A stretch of DNA of 64,000 nucleotides from Tetramitus jugosus. Taxonomy: Eukaryota > Heterolobosea > Eutetramitea > Acrasida > Vahlkampfiidae. The notes beneath the pieces are model-generated. The model searched no databases. It worked only from the letters and a program-made list of their open reading frames with translations, and was not told where the DNA came from. Made by a program: the position numbers and the translations under genes. Location of the stretch: the NCBI GenBank assembly GCA_937625935.1, contig OW569372.1, positions 186,001 to 250,000 of the forward strand, given 5' to 3'. Positions 21,409 to 28,116 of the stretch are shown one piece after another (position 1 is the first letter of the stretch; every line of letters begins with the position of its first letter).

Positions 21409-21424
21409 AGAAAACTCAAAAATT
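21409..21424 (+). repeat. Left 16-bp target-site duplication of element A
   Basis: AGAAAACTCAAAAATT, identical to 27992-28007. The last two T bases merge with the poly(T) run, so the exact edge is ambiguous by 2 bp. Confidence 0.75.
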
Positions 21425-21440
21425 TTTTTTTTTTTTTTTT
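21423..21440 (-). repeat. Poly(A) tail of element A (poly(T) on plus strand)
   Basis: Eighteen T in a row directly after the left target-site copy, followed inward by GTTCCATACAACCA. Its complement contains TGGTTGTAT, the same sequence found just before the tail of element B. Confidence 0.7.
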
Positions 21441-21454
21441 GTTCCATACAACCA

Positions 21455-21479
21455 CCCGAATAAAAATTTTGGCGACAAC
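21455..21479 (+). repeat. Left terminal inverted repeat of the CACTA-like element
   Basis: Begins CCCGAATAAAAATTTT. Compared with the complement of 26110-26134, 14 of the outer 15 bases and 19 of 25 in total agree. Confidence 0.6.
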
Positions 21480-21802
21480 TTTTACGGTCGTTTTTCAGAT
21501 TTTCCCAGTTGGAGCTCCACATGACTTTTAAAAGTCGACCCCTCAACAATACAAAGTGGACACATAAGTTTTTTCGTTTTCATTGCAGTGTTCACTGTCG
21601 AAAATTGAAAGGTTGATCTTCGAGGTATGAACTTTTCGAACAATGAAGCAATGTTCTCCCCTTCCACTTTCCTTAACATGAACGGAACAACATGCAACCT
21701 TGGAGCAAATAAAACAAAGGTAGTATCAATTTTTCTTTTTATCGAAAATTAACAAAGCCTTTGAGGTGTCTCGTGTGACCTCTTCTCCGCCTACCACTTA
21801 AA
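21480..21802. other. Left subterminal region of the transposon, no gene
   Basis: Between the left inverted repeat and the transposase stop codon. It holds the palindrome at 21524 and presumably the 3' UTR of the transposase. I see no further open frame or RNA gene. Confidence 0.5.
21524..21538 (+). repeat. Subterminal palindrome, left
   Basis: ACTTTTAAAAGTCGA; its core ACTTTTAAAAGT is a perfect palindrome. It lies 69 bp inside the left end. A second copy sits near the right end. Subterminal repeats bind the accessory TnpA-like protein in CACTA elements, so this is a candidate site. Confidence 0.5.
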
Positions 21803-24484
21803 CTAACGCAGCAATGCTCCATGCCAGGGCAACAAATCCACACAACCAATCACCTTCTCTTGCTTCCAAAACACAATCACTGGAGTTTCGATAGCCGATA
21901 CTCGGCAATGCTCAAGACCTTGAAACACTTGATTCGTCAAAACCTTGAACGAGATGCACACTCCCTCCTGCTTTTTCACTTGAATACCCACCACTAGAAC
22001 AACTCTTTAACAATGACAGTTAGATGATCAAGAATAAATGAAACGGCTACACCAAGTCAACATACCTTCCATCTCTTAATCTTACAGTGGAGTTATTGTA
22101 CGACCTTTGTCTTACATCATGCAGCGCATCAATTGAATACCAGTCTTTTCTCATGTACTTGTAGTAGCCCTCCTCCTTTTTCTTCACTCTTCCAAACACA
22201 TGCACCCCGTCCAGCCGAACACCATCAGAGCGAGACCCAAATCGTCTCTTCTACAAGGGTAAGTAAGAATTGGTTGAGTTCATTGAACAAAGTGACAACA
22301 ACATTGATACTACTTACACTCATTGCATGTAACACTTTCATCGTTCCTTTGTGTGACATGCCGTTCAAGCGATCTTCGAGATGCTGCAACAAGGGAATAG
22401 CCTCGCAAATACCTTGATCCACTCGATACGTTCCGTGGATGGATCGAAGAATCACTCGGTTAAAACTCTCAAACGGGAATGCTGTGTAGCACCAGAGAGG
22501 TCCATGCCTCTTCACACAATCAACCAAATGGGTAAGAAGATGAACATTTAATGTAACATACCGATCACCATACACTTCCTGGAACTGAGTCACATAATGT
22601 GTCAGCTCCATTTGTACTTTATCCAATTGTTGCGTTGACAGTTCAGGTTGAAGCAGGTCATACAGAGCATTGACCAGAATCATGTGGTGGTCAAAATAGG
22701 GAGTGTTTGCTGGAAACAAGTGTTTTGTAAGTCTCGATGTATAGAGCATGAACACAAGACACTCTGATGCTTTAAAATATCGATGATGCTTGATGATTGA
22801 TCTGAGATTTCGTCGAAACACAGATGGAAGCTGTTGCTGCAAGAGCAATTGATCGAATGACTCCCACATCTGCTTGCTCACTCTTGCTCCCAATCTGTCG
22901 TTATACTGCATGAGTGCCATGAAGAATGATTGTCAACAAAGAGTATTTGCCTTGGAGAATGAGTGTAAACAATGAAACGTCACATACCTTGGATTCTGTC
23001 CAAAGCTTCATCAACAAGGAGAATACTCCCTCCAGCAAATGCATAATATCAATACTTCCAAAACTTGTCCATTCCCAGTAAGGAAGCATTTCTGAGAAGA
23101 TCGAAATACCAGTGTGTCCATTGATGACTGGTAGATCAGACCAAGCCACTCCTTCACTGAGTAGTGTTCGATACTTGTTGTACACTTCTTTCACTTGAGT
23201 CTCTGTTCTCAGGGAGTGATCAAACACAAAATCTTGGAATCGTCTCAACAGAGGATAACAAAACCTCTTATCAATAGTGCAACCAGAGTGATTGCAAAAT
23301 CCACAGGCGCCCCTTCCACCGTGTTGTTGTTGCATGAACAAACCTGCTTTAGCCGGTAGATCGCAACAAGAGTTGATACATCGGAGCCGGAACAACTCTT
23401 CTTTACCGTGTGCATCCTGCCCTCTAATACCTTGATCAGCCTCCTTCAATTCAGTTGCTAGCACCGAGAACAAAATGTTCGATGTTGGCTTGTTCTTGCC
23501 AAACCACACGCCACAGAAGATGACATTTTCAATCTTCATCCTCTCGTTGAAAGGCAGCTCGTTGCACACCATGAAAATGGGAATGGCAGTAACGAGACTG
23601 CTCTTCCACTTTGTGGCACCGTCATAATTCACCAGAAAGGAGTAGCCCCCTCTGGTTGTTGTCACAGGAGCAGCAATTCTCCTGTACACTTCACCGTCAT
23701 AAACATCACGAATCATATCAGATGATTTACAATGCCTCAGGCGATAGTGCTGGGCGAGAGTGTAAAACCTTTTGTCCACTTTCATTCTGTCAACAAACTG
23801 TTGGACCGGATTGTTCCAAAGGAAATACTCCATTGAACAATTCCTATTGTGCTTGCAAACACTGTTGCCCGTCACAAAATTGTGCTCGCGACAAAAGTAA
23901 ATCTTGTTCATTCTTGAGTGGTGAGCAAGGCACTTGAAAAACTTGTGCTTGGATGTCACTAGAGCATTGTTCTTGGGAAGAAACGCCTGGAGGAAGGTCA
24001 ACAACTTTTCCAAACCTGACTTGCTCAGATTGAGTTGGACCATGAGATACAAAATCAAAGTATAAGCAGTATACAAAGAAATGGGAAGATATTGACACAC
24101 CTTTTGATCCCATAGTGGATCATCACTATGAATCGTGGAGATTCCATTGGTGTAATCATCTCCGATGACTGACCTTGATTCTTGCATCTCGAGCACGGGT
24201 CGAGCTTGAGCCAAGTCTTCTACATCAACGGACGAGAGTTTGGCTTCAATGAACTCTTCATCACCAAGCATTGGTTCACTACCACCAAAATCAGTTGTTT
24301 GGCATTGGATAGAGGGCACAGCAGTGGTGAGTAGTGGGCTTGGGTTCAGTGGAGTGTTGGATGTTGTTTGGACTGTTGAGGAGCAACAATCATATTGATG
24401 ATCAACAAAGCTAAATGTTGGATTTTCCAACATGTTCAACAACACTTGTCGCCTAGTTCTTGTTCTTGTCGTTCGATATTTCAT
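21803..24484 (-). CDS. Tnp2-family DDE transposase (EnSpm/CACTA-like), four exons
   Basis: Predicted exons: 24484-22988, 22905-22318, 22250-22066 and 22004-21803. Introns of 82, 67 and 61 nt have GTATGT, GTAAGT and GTATGT donors; all phases fit, giving about 823 residues with no stop. The frame is open further upstream but lacks ATG. The Tnp2 signature is complete: 'LVNYDGATKW' (Asp about 288), 'NELPFNERMKIENVIFCG', 'CCDLPAKA' (Asp about 375), a 'CGFCNHSGC' zinc-knuckle-like turn, 'SIDIMHLLEGVF' and, in exon 2, 'HLLTHLVDCVKRHGPLWC' with 'FPFESFNRV' (Glu about 645). The enzyme should cut at the element's inverted repeats and join them to new DNA. Nothing is visibly broken, so it may be active. 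Superfamily strong; exon edges predicted. Confidence 0.8.
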
Positions 24485-24607
24485 ATAAATGGACGTGCTT
24501 GTAGGTTTTTTGAGTGAGCAACTTTGAGAATTGTGATTTATTGTATCCACGAGCGGCTGAAGTCGGAGCTTTGTCTTGAAGACGAAACACACTTAAATTG
24601 AACAAAC
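24485..24607. promoter_or_regulatory. Shared divergent promoter of the two transposon genes
   Basis: The 123 bp between the ATG of the transposase (minus) and the ATG of the accessory gene (plus) must hold both promoters and 5' UTRs. No TATA-like box is obvious beyond ATATAAAT at 24484-24491. Head-to-head genes this close are likely co-regulated. Confidence 0.45.
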
Positions 24608-25942
24608 ATGAGCACTAGAACATACAAAACTCTTCATGTGGAGAAGTTTTCGTCCGCAGATCGTTTAGCTCTCATCACCTTCTTGTCACAGGACTCCAAC
24701 AACAACTACAGCAAACTGTCCAAAAAACAACTGCTGTATGTATGGTTGTCCTCAAAGGACAAAGTAATACAAAAAAACAAGAATGAAAAAAAGTTTACTG
24801 GACTCTCGTATGACGATTTGGCCAAGAAACTCAAGGAGTACAAGGTAGAGTGTCTACCTTTTGTAAGGCAACTACCTGTCGAACCATCTGCCAACACAAA
24901 GAAAGGGGCAACTTCCTCGTCAGGTAGTACTAACCTGACAAAATTCAAGCCATCACGCTTGCAAGACGGTAGTCGTGTCGAGCTGATGTGCGCAGATGGA
25001 GCGCATTTTGGAAGTGCAAATATCTGCGGTGACATCCCCAGCACTCAGGAGGACAAAGTGACTGTCTCCATCGTTTTCATTAACGCTCAGTTCGCCTTAG
25101 ATTTTTATCTTCCAGAGGAGACAGAGCCGGTATGCGTTGGTTCTGTCGTCGGTTGGGATAAAGTTCTCATTGTAGACCAAGAGGAATTCACCAAGAGTAG
25201 TTCTAATGAGGATAGGGAGCGCTTTAAGCATGTGGATGAATTCTTCGATGTCAGAGGGAGCTCCCAAAACATCCCTCCTCCACCAGTGGTTCTTACTCAA
25301 ACGCAAGAACCTCAATTGCGTCAATCAGATCAGGTGTCTCCTACACAAGATAGTGGTTTTGTCACGGTACCGGTGGAAGAATTTGAACGAGGCAAGGATG
25401 CACAAAGAAGATTGGTTGAAGCTCTGGAGAGACTGGAGAACTTGAAGGTCTTTGAAGCATGGTTCATGAAGACCCAAAAGACGGTGATAGAAAAGATGGC
25501 TGAAGTGACTCAGGGAAAAAAGGGCCAGTCACTGAACTTTGAAACTGGGTTCAAGTTCAACAACAAGTATTACAAAACAACTCCCGAGCAACACCACAAG
25601 TTGAGTCTTTCCCAACCGAATGTGGTTCTCAAGGCCTTCTTGGAAATTGTTGCCTCCGATTGCCAATTGGACTTGGAAAACGTGTCTTACAGTCGTCCTG
25701 GATACACAGGCACGGATAGGATTAGATTGGATCGTCAATTGGTTAACAACATTTGCGCTTGTGTCCGAAAGTCATTCAACTTCTTCATTGGTGCGAATGA
25801 TGCTTCCATCACGAAAGCTTTGGGTAAGACATTGGCAGACTTTCACAAGGAGCGCCTTGAGAAAGGTTCAAGTGAGGAGGTCATCGAAGATAATGTAGAC
25901 GACGAAGTGGAACCTCCTGCCAAAATTGCTCGTCATCAATAA
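24608..25942 (+). CDS. Transposon accessory protein, TNP1-like / BEN-like
   Basis: 444 residues from ATG 24608, intronless. A basic N-terminal helical part (1-110) is followed by a beta-rich segment at about 118-200 ('RLQDGSRVELMCADG', 'VCVGSVVGWDKVLIV') that resembles the DNA-binding TNP1/En/Spm-like domain of plant CACTA accessory proteins. About 235-310 is acidic/coiled ('RRLVEALERLENLKVF'). The last third ('LKAFLEIVASDCQLD', 'RIRLDRQLVNNICACVRKSF') has the helix pattern of a BEN domain, a DNA-binding fold. In CACTA elements the second protein binds subterminal repeats; the palindromes at 21524 and 26027 are candidate targets. Both domain assignments are tentative and rest on pattern only. 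The frame is intact. Confidence 0.5.
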   Translation: MSTRTYKTLHVEKFSSADRLALITFLSQDSNNNYSKLSKKQLLYVWLSSKDKVIQKNKNEKKFTGLSYDDLAKKLKEYKVECLPFVRQLPVEPSANTKKGATSSSGSTNLTKFKPSRLQDGSRVELMCADGAHFGSANICGDIPSTQEDKVTVSIVFINAQFALDFYLPEETEPVCVGSVVGWDKVLIVDQEEFTKSSSNEDRERFKHVDEFFDVRGSSQNIPPPPVVLTQTQEPQLRQSDQVSPTQDSGFVTVPVEEFERGKDAQRRLVEALERLENLKVFEAWFMKTQKTVIEKMAEVTQGKKGQSLNFETGFKFNNKYYKTTPEQHHKLSLSQPNVVLKAFLEIVASDCQLDLENVSYSRPGYTGTDRIRLDRQLVNNICACVRKSFNFFIGANDASITKALGKTLADFHKERLEKGSSEEVIEDNVDDEVEPPAKIARHQ

Positions 25943-26026
25943 AAGATTATTCCAAGGTAAAACAATTTCTTTTTGTTTTTGTTTTTCTTTTTGGACCATT
26001 TTGTTTTTTTTGTATTTGACGTGCCA

Positions 26027-26041
26027 ACTTTTAAAAGTCGA
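26027..26041 (+). repeat. Subterminal palindrome, right
   Basis: ACTTTTAAAAGTCGA, identical over 15 bp to 21524-21538, 93 bp inside the right end of the transposon. Confidence 0.5.
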
Positions 26042-26109
26042 ATCGTAAGTGAGAACGACGCGGGAGAAAAAAAAAGTCGACGGTTCATCTATCGTGTCAA
26101 CTTCCAAAT

Positions 26110-26134
26110 GTTGGTGGACAAATTTTTACTCGGG
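26110..26134 (-). repeat. Right terminal inverted repeat of the CACTA-like element
   Basis: Read inward on the minus strand it begins CCCGAGTAAAAATTTG. It pairs with 21455-21479 and is followed outside by CA, matching the left flank. Confidence 0.6.
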
Positions 26135-26137
26135 CAT

Positions 26138-26160
26138 GTGTGCTTGCGCAGCAAGCACAC
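26138..26160 (-). repeat. 3' hairpin 2 of element A
   Basis: A perfect 10-bp stem (GTGTGCTTGC with GCAAGCACAC) around a 3-nt loop, 86 bp after the ORF1 stop and directly beside the transposon insertion point. Element B has a hairpin of the same plan. Confidence 0.6.
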
Positions 26161-26185
26161 GATTGCTCATTTATTGACTTGTTTT

Positions 26186-26215
26186 GTGAGTGACGACCCG
26201 TAGGGCGTCATTCAC
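26186..26215 (-). repeat. 3' hairpin 1 of element A
   Basis: GTGAGTGACG pairs with CGTCATTCAC (one wobble), then a one-base bulge and CCC/GGG around a GTA loop. The TGACG/CGTCA part is shared with the first hairpin of element B, suggesting a common 3' recognition structure. Confidence 0.6.
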
Positions 26216-26246
26216 TCTTCTTCTCTTGTTGTCCCCGACGGTGCAC

Positions 26247-27410
26247 CTACAGGTTGGAAGAATCACTCTGGTGAGTGTTTTGGTTGATGCCCTTCATCAA
26301 AGAGCGTAACCTTGTAGTAGGACCGTCGATGGACACAGAGCCATCTGTTGTTGTTTTCTTGTTTTGGGCCTTGTTGCTCATCAGATCACCCAGTGTGATC
26401 CTAGCACTCCTCTTCTTGTTGTCATTGAGTTGTGGACTCTGAATCTCCTTTTCGGAGTCATCATCCACATCCACAATGACTGGTTCGTCCTCAGTTAAAC
26501 CATACCTTTTGCGTGCAGCAGCCAGCGCCAATGCAGCAATTTCCTTTTTCACTCTGGCGAACACTGGAGAAGTGGCATTCACTTGCTCCAGAATTTGCCG
26601 GTTCTCAGCACTGAGCTGTACAACAGGCACTGATAGCAGTGGTGTTGCTACAGTCCTTTGTTCTTCTACCTCCACTAGCTCAGGAGTCTCCATCCTAGCA
26701 GTGGCTTGGGCAACTTCTTGTTCCGGCATTGGAACCGGTTTGTTGCCCCATTGACCCTTTGTCTTTGCCAATTCCTTGGTGAGTTCTGTGACCTGTCGAC
26801 GCAGTCCGTCAACCACCGTCAGCAGCTCCTCGTACATCTTCGTCAACCTCTTGTTGACAGCCTTGAGAGGATCATGTGGTCTCTCGACGTATCGAGTGAC
26901 CGTGGCCTTGACCTTGTTCTCTCCGCTGAGCACTGCCCGTGCATAGGTTTCATCACCCATGACCACGAAAGCAGTGTCACGCTTCTTGAGCACACTGGCA
27001 ACCTTCTCAGGTCCCAGTAGCTTCTTGATGTCGTCCACTGACATGTTCTTCATGCCATGGACGACCACCTTTCTTGTGCAATCAACACTGCGCTTGGGTG
27101 CAGCAGTGCTGTTGCCAATCCTCCTTTGTTTGTTGAATAGATCAACAAACTCATAGATGCGGTCACCCTTGACCGTCACCCATGCAACAAAGCGTTGCTG
27201 GCCTTTCCTCTTGATGACTTGGACTCGGTTGAGCCAGTCACCAAACTCCTCTCCTATCTTTCTTGCCAAAGATGACTGAGAGACACCATTACCGTTGCCA
27301 GTAATGACGACCTCTCTGTCACTTGGCCTAGAGCCTTTCCGTGCAGTGGTCCACACTGCATAACGGCTGTTGCCGTATTCCTTCACCAAATTTGTTGAAT
27401 CACCAGACAT
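26247..27410 (-). CDS. LINE ORF1-like nucleic-acid-binding protein (element A)
   Basis: 387 residues from ATG 27410; the frame is also open for nine codons upstream to the element's 5' edge, encoding the basic KKRRKKRNH. Two small alpha/beta segments look RRM-like: about 30-95 ('REVVITGNG', 'RFVAWVTVKG') and about 110-165 ('RKVVVHGMKNMSVDDIKKLLG', 'DTAFVVMGD'). A heptad-rich segment (about 185-215, 'LTKMYEELLTVVDGLRRQV') could form a coiled coil. This order of RNA-binding folds plus coiled coil is that of LINE ORF1/Gag-like chaperones. There is no Cys-His zinc knuckle. The C-terminal half is acidic/Ala-rich. G+C is clearly above that of the host genes. Function inferred from fold pattern and context. 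Confidence 0.55.
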   Translation of the reverse strand: MSGDSTNLVKEYGNSRYAVWTTARKGSRPSDREVVITGNGNGVSQSSLARKIGEEFGDWLNRVQVIKRKGQQRFVAWVTVKGDRIYEFVDLFNKQRRIGNSTAAPKRSVDCTRKVVVHGMKNMSVDDIKKLLGPEKVASVLKKRDTAFVVMGDETYARAVLSGENKVKATVTRYVERPHDPLKAVNKRLTKMYEELLTVVDGLRRQVTELTKELAKTKGQWGNKPVPMPEQEVAQATARMETPELVEVEEQRTVATPLLSVPVVQLSAENRQILEQVNATSPVFARVKKEIAALALAAARKRYGLTEDEPVIVDVDDDSEKEIQSPQLNDNKKRSARITLGDLMSNKAQNKKTTTDGSVSIDGPTTRLRSLMKGINQNTHQSDSSNL

Positions 27411-27427
27411 GTGATTCCGTTTTTTTC

Positions 27428-27442
27428 TGCGTTTTTTAGAAA
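27428..27442 (+). repeat. Left 15-bp target-site duplication of element B
   Basis: TGCGTTTTTTAGAAA, identical to 27982-27996. It is made of the last ten bases of element A (its 5' end) plus five bases of A's own target duplication, which shows that B inserted after A. Confidence 0.75.
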
Positions 27443-27519
27443 TTATTTTTTTTTTTTTTTTTTTTTTTTTTATACAACCATTTCGGTTGCTCGCTTTATT
27501 GTCTTTTGTTTTCTTCGGC

Positions 27520-27538
27520 CATCGCTCGAAGAGCGATG
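27520..27538 (-). repeat. 3' hairpin 2 of element B
   Basis: 8-bp stem (CATCGCTC with GAGCGATG) around a GAA loop, in the 3' UTR between the ORF2 stop and the poly(A). Confidence 0.6.
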
Positions 27539-27562
27539 ACCCTTGGTCACCTGATTAATTCT

Positions 27563-27587
27563 CAATGACGCTCGCAGAGCGTCATTG
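27563..27587 (-). repeat. 3' hairpin 1 of element B
   Basis: Perfect 11-bp stem (CAATGACGCTC with GAGCGTCATTG) around GCA. The ORF2 stop codon TGA lies within the stem. Confidence 0.65.
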
Positions 27588-27981
27588 TTGTTTCGCTTTT
27601 GTTGTGGTGAAGAGGTGAAGGAGAGTCGTGAGACATCTCCGTTTCACCCCATTCACATAAATTCTTGCTTTTTTTACGGCCACTGCTACTCTGACTCCAC
27701 TGGCTACCAATCCATTGGTGATATCTTCGATGGCACTCGTTTCGATGCCCATCATACCTGTTAGATACTCTCTGCTAGTCCACCGCAGTGCTCTTTTTTC
27801 AATCTTTCCGTTCTTGAGTCTGACATTATCGAACCATATGTCGATACAACTGTCAGCTGACACTCCCATGCTAATTAGTTCCTTACCCACTGTCAGTGCT
27901 AGACACCGTCTAGCATGGACAGACCTGGGACAACGTACCAAGCAGTGTAAGACACTCTCGGGTTCTTTTTTGCACCAGGAG
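27582..27981 (-). pseudogene. C-terminal fragment of LINE ORF2 (zinc-knuckle region)
   Basis: About 132 codons, open from the truncated 5' edge of element B to TGA at 27582. The start shows 'SWCKKEPESVLHCLVRCP', the Cys...Glu-Ser-x2-His-x4-Cys-Pro pattern found C-terminal to reverse transcriptase (zf-RVT-like) in many non-LTR retrotransposons. The rest ('VGKELISMGV', 'SREYLTGMMGI') is the ORF2 tail. The reverse transcriptase and endonuclease are missing, so this copy cannot move by itself. The last codon overlaps hairpin 1. It is not a host gene even though a small frame could be called here. Confidence 0.7.
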
Positions 27982-27996
27982 TGCGTTTTTTAGAAA
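27982..27996 (+). repeat. Right 15-bp target-site duplication of element B
   Basis: TGCGTTTTTTAGAAA, exact copy of 27428-27442; it overlaps the first five bases of the right duplication of element A. Confidence 0.75.
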
Positions 27997-28007
27997 ACTC
28001 AAAAATT
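27992..28007 (+). repeat. Right 16-bp target-site duplication of element A
   Basis: AGAAAACTCAAAAATT, exact copy of 21409-21424, ending 27 bp before the tRNA-Leu gene. Confidence 0.75.
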
Positions 28008-28034
28008 AGAAAATTAAATTTCTATGGATGTCCA

Positions 28035-28116
28035 GCATGCGTGGCCGAGTGGTCTAAGGCGTCCGACTCAAGTTCGGATATCTCCGGATGCGTGAGTTCA
28101 AATCTCACCGCATGCA
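28035..28116 (+). tRNA. tRNA-Leu (CAA anticodon)
   Basis: 82 nt with a full cloverleaf. The acceptor stem GCATGCG pairs with CGCATGC, followed by discriminator A. The anticodon stem TCCGA/TCGGA encloses loop CTCAAGT, anticodon CAA. A 13-nt variable arm marks a class II tRNA, and the T stem GTGAG/CTCAC carries the loop TTCAAAT. A-box (TGGCCGAGTGG) and B-box (GTTCAAATC) are intact; there is no intron and no encoded CCA. A TTTTT terminator begins a few bases downstream. Two retroelement insertions lie directly upstream. Confidence 0.95.

What the first reader, a model, noticed from the sequence alone, without database searches (positions are those of the whole stretch)
27428..28116. Candidate tRNA-gene-targeting non-LTR retrotransposon family
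Two LINE insertions hit the same short zone upstream of one tRNA-Leu gene: duplications end 27 bp (A) and 38 bp (B) before the mature tRNA, in the same orientation with 5' ends toward the tRNA. B restored a similar distance although A already occupied the site. This parallels position-specific integration upstream of tRNA genes by Dictyostelium TRE5 elements, which is thought to use Pol III factors. I am not aware of such a system in this type of organism.
Basis: partly seen in the sequence, partly recalled or inferred. Interest (0 to 1): 0.85.

Follow-up and report, generated by a model that had tools for sequence, protein, structure and literature searches.

The report
Jumping genes that target tRNA genes
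In a soil amoeba, LINE-type jumping genes land almost to the base at one spot just upstream of tRNA and 5S RNA genes, a targeting trick known to us only from similar elements of the distantly related slime moulds.

Summary
Both insertions are real: exact target-site duplications end 27 bp (A) and 38 bp (B) before tRNA-Leu. The genome matches Tetramitus jugosus, Heterolobosea. Of 40 copies of A scored (of 164 candidates), 25 have the 5' end 35-53 bp upstream of an intact, facing tRNA gene (median 44); 1 lies 5 bp from a tRNA, 1 beside a degenerate tRNA, 4 lie 35-45 bp upstream of 5S genes, and 9 sit behind another element in a stack, 3 of them untraced. The first nick, read from duplications, is 29.1±1.4 bp upstream of the tRNA (n=14, one outlier left out) and 22 bp upstream of 5S (n=2), without a clear motif. 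Autonomous LINEs show the same geometry in 7 of 11 copies examined. A is an ORF1-only element whose ORF1 is under purifying selection. Best explanation: target-primed reverse transcription guided by the Pol III initiation complex, as in Dictyostelium TRE5; protein contacts are inferred. Kinship with TRE5 could not be tested. No report outside dictyostelids turned up in our paper searches.

The parts
28035..28116 (+). tRNA-Leu(CAA) gene, the target
   Evidence: ARAGORN
26135..27437 (-). element A, main part: 5' end at 27437 toward the tRNA, ORF1 and most of the 3' region
   Evidence: alignment with 20 long-locus copies; left edge is the DNA transposon
26247..27410 (-). ORF1 of A, 387 aa, intact; two RRM-like units and a coiled coil predicted
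   Evidence: model
21425..21454 (-). remaining 3' end of A with its poly(A) tail, cut off from the rest by the DNA transposon
21409..21424 (.). target-site duplication of A, left copy
27992..28007 (.). target-site duplication of A, right copy; ends 27 bp before the tRNA
27443..27981 (-). element B: 5'-truncated LINE, poly(A) tail (27443-27471 region) and C-terminal ORF2 fragment
27428..27442 (.). target-site duplication of B, left copy (overlaps the 5' end of A)
27982..27996 (.). target-site duplication of B, right copy; ends 38 bp before the tRNA
21455..26134 (.). DNA transposon with imperfect inverted ends and a weak tnp2-like ORF, inserted in A's 3' end

Best explanation
The two insertions belong to a LINE superfamily of Tetramitus jugosus that integrates by target-primed reverse transcription at a fixed place upstream of Pol III genes. 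Autonomous members (about 5 kb) carry ORF1 and an ORF2 with an APE-like endonuclease and reverse transcriptase. ORF1-only elements such as A are probably mobilised in trans by that ORF2, which would recognise a shared 3' stem-loop and poly(A). The integration complex is held by proteins on the gene, most likely TFIIIB (TBP, Brf1, Bdp1), probably through ORF1p. The endonuclease nicks the tRNA-sense strand about 29 bp before the mature tRNA (22 bp before 5S), nearly regardless of sequence; the second nick lies roughly 8-19 bp further out. So the element's 5' end faces the gene at about 45 bp, and each new insertion pushes older ones outward into a stack. Shown: spacing, orientation, duplications, both gene types, stacks, ORF layout, selection on ORF1. 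Inferred: TFIIIB contact, role of ORF1p, trans-mobilisation.
For: 40 A copies: 25 at 35-53 bp of a facing tRNA, 4 at 35-45 bp of 5S, 9 in stacks of which 6 have a facing tRNA beyond. First nick 29.1±1.4 bp (n=14 tRNA) and 22 bp (n=2, 5S); no position above 0.43 bits at 17 nick sites. Neighbours are 14 tRNA isotypes plus 5S, so the shared feature is Pol III transcription. Autonomous LINEs: 7 of 11 with a facing tRNA at the 5' end. Whole-genome pattern A-5'end + gap + B-box core: 10 hits, 0 in the reversed control. ORF1 intact in 17 of 21, median dN/dS 0.30. 29 distinct poly(A)-linked 3' ends found by GTTGTAT-A(n), 25 of them with GCAA as the upstream arm (counted by eye).
Against: L018 lies only 5 bp from its tRNA; C16 LINE (L065) has no recognised Pol III gene; 3 of 9 stacked A copies and 3 of 11 LINE copies were not traced; B's nick is at 38 bp. 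Endonuclease and zinc-finger matches are below Pfam cut-offs. No protein interaction was or could be tested.
Confidence: 0.82

Rival explanations
1. Survivorship: the LINEs insert anywhere and, in this compact genome, only insertions beside tRNA genes are tolerated.
For: The genome is compact (26.3 Mb), and the window is gene-dense.
Against: Tolerance cannot give a nick placed with sd 1.4 bp or one fixed orientation.
Confidence: 0.03
2. The ORF2 endonuclease recognises a DNA sequence that happens to lie upstream of Pol III genes.
For: Many target-specific LINEs cut a fixed sequence (general knowledge). Slight A/T excess around the nick.
Against: At 17 nick sites no position exceeds 0.43 bits; 14 tRNA isotypes and 5S have different flanks.
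Confidence: 0.04
3. Copies spread by duplication of whole tRNA loci, not by separate insertions.
For: L013 and L015, both at tRNA-Tyr, align over 2.9 kb.
Against: 17 of 20 long loci have readable duplications, and they differ from locus to locus, L013 and L015 included.
Confidence: 0.02
4. The complex is guided by another Pol III feature: TFIIIC, Pol III itself, or the open chromatin of the gene, and not TFIIIB.
For: Sequence data cannot tell these apart; Ty1 uses Pol III subunits (PMC5911963, passages).
Against: The nick is too sharply placed for open chromatin; tRNA and 5S genes differ in their internal promoters but share TFIIIB (recalled).
Confidence: 0.2

Closest known systems
TRE5-A of Dictyostelium discoideum (TRE5-A.1 and the ORF2-less TRE5-A.2)
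   Same: 5' end faces the tRNA 5' end; 47±3 bp upstream of tRNA genes and 37-42 bp upstream of 5S; APE endonuclease and RT in ORF2; an ORF1-bearing derivative without ORF2 (PMC5391098, PMC5911963, passages).
   Different: Host is a heterolobosean, not a dictyostelid. Less than about 30 nt before ORF1, where TRE5-A has an A/B-module 5' UTR. ORF2 has its own ATG in an ATGA overlap (coordinates), where a -1 frameshift is reported for TRE5-A. Sequence kinship untested.
NLTR-B of Polysphondylium pallidum
   Same: Non-LTR element 39-64 bp upstream of tRNA genes (PMC5911963, passages; PMC5006619 section 9).
   Different: It carries an RNase H domain; none was found by Pfam in the ORF2s scanned here. 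Different host.
Ty3 and DGLT-A (LTR retrotransposons)
   Same: Position-specific integration at Pol III genes; Ty3 through TFIIIB (PMC5911963, passages).
   Different: LTR elements with an integrase, other chemistry, closer sites (1-4 bp from the start site; 13-33 bp upstream).

Membership tests
Pol III-gene-targeting non-LTR retrotransposons (functional class) | non-LTR retrotransposon: RT, poly(A), target-site duplications | tested here: met
   RVT_1 in ORF2; poly(A) and duplications in 17 of 20 long A loci and in L053, L052, L049
Pol III-gene-targeting non-LTR retrotransposons (functional class) | fixed distance and orientation to tRNA or 5S genes | tested here: met
   25 of 40 A copies at 35-53 bp of a tRNA, 4 at 35-45 bp of 5S, 9 stacked, 2 others
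TRE5 | 5' end faces the tRNA 5' end about 40-54 bp upstream | tested here: met
   median 44 bp
TRE5 | use of 5S genes at 37-42 bp | tested here: met
   37, 35, 39 and 45 bp
TRE5 | ORF2 with APE endonuclease, RT and zinc finger | tested here: inconclusive
   RVT_1 over cut-off; Exo_endo_phos and zf-RVT matches below cut-off
TRE5 | ORF2-less derivative that keeps ORF1 | tested here: met
   A family
TRE5 | modular 5' UTR (A and B modules) | tested here: not met
   less than about 30 nt before ORF1 in A and L053
TRE5 | RT groups with TRE5 in a tree | not testable with these tools
TRE5 | ORF1p binds TFIIIB subunits | not testable with these tools
   needs experiment

The most novel reading that the evidence does not exclude
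A Pol III-guided LINE superfamily outside dictyostelids, evolved independently or inherited from a very deep ancestor, in which the target gene gives both landing site and promoter: with under about 30 nt before ORF1, each new copy would be transcribed from the open region between its 5' end and the tRNA gene, and would lose that promoter when the next insertion displaces it outward.
Probability: 0.3. Interest if true: 0.88.

Novelty: new variant of a known kind. Interest (0 to 1): 0.74.

Why it matters
In the papers we could search, non-LTR elements that read the Pol III machinery are reported only from dictyostelids. The same geometry within a few base pairs, including the 5S case and an ORF2-less rider, in a heterolobosean makes it an open question whether such guidance is ancient, transferred, or a repeatable solution. 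Stacks of insertions at single genes keep a record of the order of events, and the 29 versus 22 bp nick offset predicts where TFIIIB sits on the two gene types. ORF1 swaps between the two systems could show which protein does the aiming, which is of practical interest for insertion at safe sites.

Tried and rejected
Led nowhere: naming the host by PDB similarity of BRR2 and a second ORF; Mantamonas as host, rejected because the paper gives 59% GC; an SSU rRNA search that the server did not answer. Kinship to TRE5: the listed RT hits (120 of 273, 19) show no dictyostelid among those that bear a name, but most bear none, so this says little. Pfam on ORF1 gave nothing; the RRM reading rests on a predicted model only (mean pLDDT 60.9; 70-88 per block over residues 11-150, 53-65 over 151-190). 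I first doubted A's duplication because its 3' end seemed to be missing; the DNA transposon resolved this. Rejected: random spread, motif-specific cutting, locus duplication as the main cause (see rivals). Rows dropped before counting: 2 of 42 rows (short pieces beside another copy); L018 from the nick mean and from the 25 distances; L010, L022, L030 and L034 had mis-set boundaries, and L010 and L034 were taken. L019, L022 and L028 (all nested) gave no readable duplication. How many A 5' ends lack a B box at the gap was not searched.

Full report
HOST. G000 has 26,348,746 bases in 56 contigs. Contig lengths C1 699,783 and C46 399,693, C23 499,551 and C54 49,460 equal the longest scaffold, N90, N50 and (rounded) mitochondrial size in the genome note for Tetramitus jugosus CCAP 1588/3C, Heterolobosea (PMC11106597; part 1 of 3 of the text seen). 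The naming is my inference. The window lies on C29.

THE OBSERVATION. tRNA-Leu(CAA) is at 28035-28116. B carries an exact 15-bp duplication starting at 27428 and 27982; A an exact 16-bp duplication starting at 21409 and 27992. They end 38 and 27 bp before the tRNA. A's left duplication is displaced by a 4.7-kb DNA transposon with imperfect inverted ends (21455-26134) inside A's 3' end. Before B inserted, A's 5' end was 44 bp from the tRNA.

ELEMENT A GENOME-WIDE. One search scored 40 of 164 candidates and gave 42 rows; I count 40 copies and dropped two short rows beside another copy. I read the 5' flank of the 40 (window; distances). ARAGORN finds a tRNA directly beside 26: 25 at 35-53 bp (mean 44.7, sd 3.2, median 44) and one (L018) at 5 bp. 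L043 faces a degenerate tRNA (Rfam 33.2 bits). L017, L027, L031 and L042 face 5S genes at 37, 35, 39 and 45 bp. Nine, the window copy included, abut the 3' end of another element. Six of these nine have a facing tRNA on the far side (window, L019, L022, L029, L032, L046); three (L028, L030, L038) could not be traced. The 26 direct tRNA cases cover 14 isotypes, and in each the element's 5' end faces the tRNA's 5' end. A whole-genome pattern, A's exact 5' end followed after 75-105 bases by a B-box core, gives 10 hits and 0 for the reversed control.

THE NICK. Seventeen of 20 long loci have readable duplications of 8-19 bp; the other three are nested. Their gene-proximal end, the first nick in the target-primed model, is 27-32 bp upstream of the mature tRNA (mean 29.1, sd 1.4, n=14; L018 left out) and 22 bp upstream of 5S in both cases. 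It is tighter than the 5'-end distance, as expected if the nick is what is positioned. At 17 nick sites (16 of these plus window A) no position exceeds 0.43 bits and the primer ends are not T-rich. Window B, at 38 bp, lies outside this range. A tRNA leader of several nucleotides would bring the 29 and 22 bp values to a similar distance from the transcription start; that is inference.

AUTONOMOUS LINES. RVT_1 has 73 hits in the genome, not all of them LINEs of this kind. L053 and L052 carry ORF1 and an ORF2 of 1,274 and 1,283 aa with RVT_1 over the cut-off; Exo_endo_phos matches and, in L052, zf-RVT lie below their cut-offs. The two ORF2s are 42% identical, so the superfamily is diverse and probably old. 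I looked at the 5' side of 11 RT copies not picked for a tRNA neighbour (four were picked because they adjoin an A copy). Seven have a facing tRNA there: C10 51 bp, C29 58, C34 46, C35 42, C37:212k 55, C27 47 (edges uncertain by a run of T), and C20:474k, where only the start of a tRNA was in reach. One (C16, L065) has no recognised Pol III gene. In three the 5' end was not located (C38, preceded by other LINE sequence; C37:190k; C14:162k). L049, L050 and L054, picked for B similarity or a known tRNA, give 44, 38 and 45 bp.

COORDINATE TEST. One search lists 110 ORF1 hits (110 of 238 candidates scored). On C1 to C10 (to 352 kb), where the strict B-box list is whole (442 hits genome-wide against 108 for the reversed control), 10 of 19 have a facing gene within 4 kb upstream and 0 a non-facing one; downstream the counts are 2 and 1. 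Four of the nine misses are A copies on C3, C4 and C7 that do have a facing tRNA by ARAGORN (L033, L016, L013, L026), so the strict list misses many genes.

WHAT A IS. A is about 1.33 kb: under 30 nt, ORF1, a short 3' region and poly(A). ORF1 is intact in 17 of 21 copies read in full, median dN/dS 0.30 over 136 pairs, so its protein is under selection. It is 39% identical to ORF1 of L053 over 210 residues and 32% to that of L052 over 196. A protein search found 5 relatives, none with a named organism. The model shows two beta-alpha-beta-beta-alpha-beta units and a long helix, and its top matches are mostly tandem-RRM proteins with low TM-scores. A second ORF1-like family, about 65% identical in DNA, lies beside A in several loci. 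Twenty-nine distinct 3' ends, picked by GTTGTAT-A(n), come from A, B and other families; 25 have GCAA as a possible upstream arm (counted by eye). This suggests use of one ORF2 in trans.

COMPARISON. Dictyostelium TRE5-A integrates 47±3 bp upstream of tRNA genes (80.2% of events) and 37-42 bp upstream of 5S, 5' end facing the gene; it needs the B box, its ORF1 binds TBP in vitro, and TRE5-A.2 lacks ORF2 (PMC5391098, passages; PMC5911963, passages). TRE-like elements were not found in Physarum, Acanthamoeba or Protostelium (PMC5006619, abstract and section 9). The present system works like TRE5. I do not file it as TRE5: the modular 5' UTR is not met and kinship could not be tested.

LITERATURE. 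I found no report of a non-LTR element upstream of tRNA genes outside dictyostelids, and none on retrotransposons of Tetramitus, in searches. The library holds open-licence PMC papers only, and in one search only 20 of 1,091 papers were listed. Of the 8 papers of one search I saw passages or sections of four (PMC5006619, PMC5391098, PMC5911963, PMC7175516) and only the listing of the other four.

Noticed in passing
window 21455-26134: DNA transposon with imperfect inverted ends (29 nt, 76% complementary), a weak tnp2-like ORF (22901-24592, below the Pfam cut-off) and a second ORF (24608-25942), inserted in A's 3' end.
   Followed up: partly
genome G000, 47 places listed: 5S rRNA genes are dispersed over the chromosomes, most with identical scores, instead of lying in one array; 47 of 772 candidates were scored.
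   Followed up: partly
C1:4436, C3:2089, C17:2337, C22:2739, C10:606104, C48:379851: Weak RT matches within a few kb of contig ends, several in long open frames; possibly a separate subtelomeric element.
   Followed up: no
L050 (C40:86500-91800), near 265: A LINE copy that lacks ORF1 and the start of ORF2 still begins with the family's 5' terminal sequence (AAAAAACGCAGAAAAAA); perhaps a template jump.
   Followed up: no
C1:1-400 (L057): Contig end is pure CCCAAA repeat, so the telomere repeat appears to be TTTGGG.
   Followed up: no
C54 and C56: Both contigs give tRNA hits at the same coordinates, so the mitochondrial genome may be present twice in the held assembly.
   Followed up: no
L016 and L017: Two A copies, one at tRNA-Leu and one at 5S, are 100% identical over 1.33 kb, which points to recent movement.
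   Followed up: no
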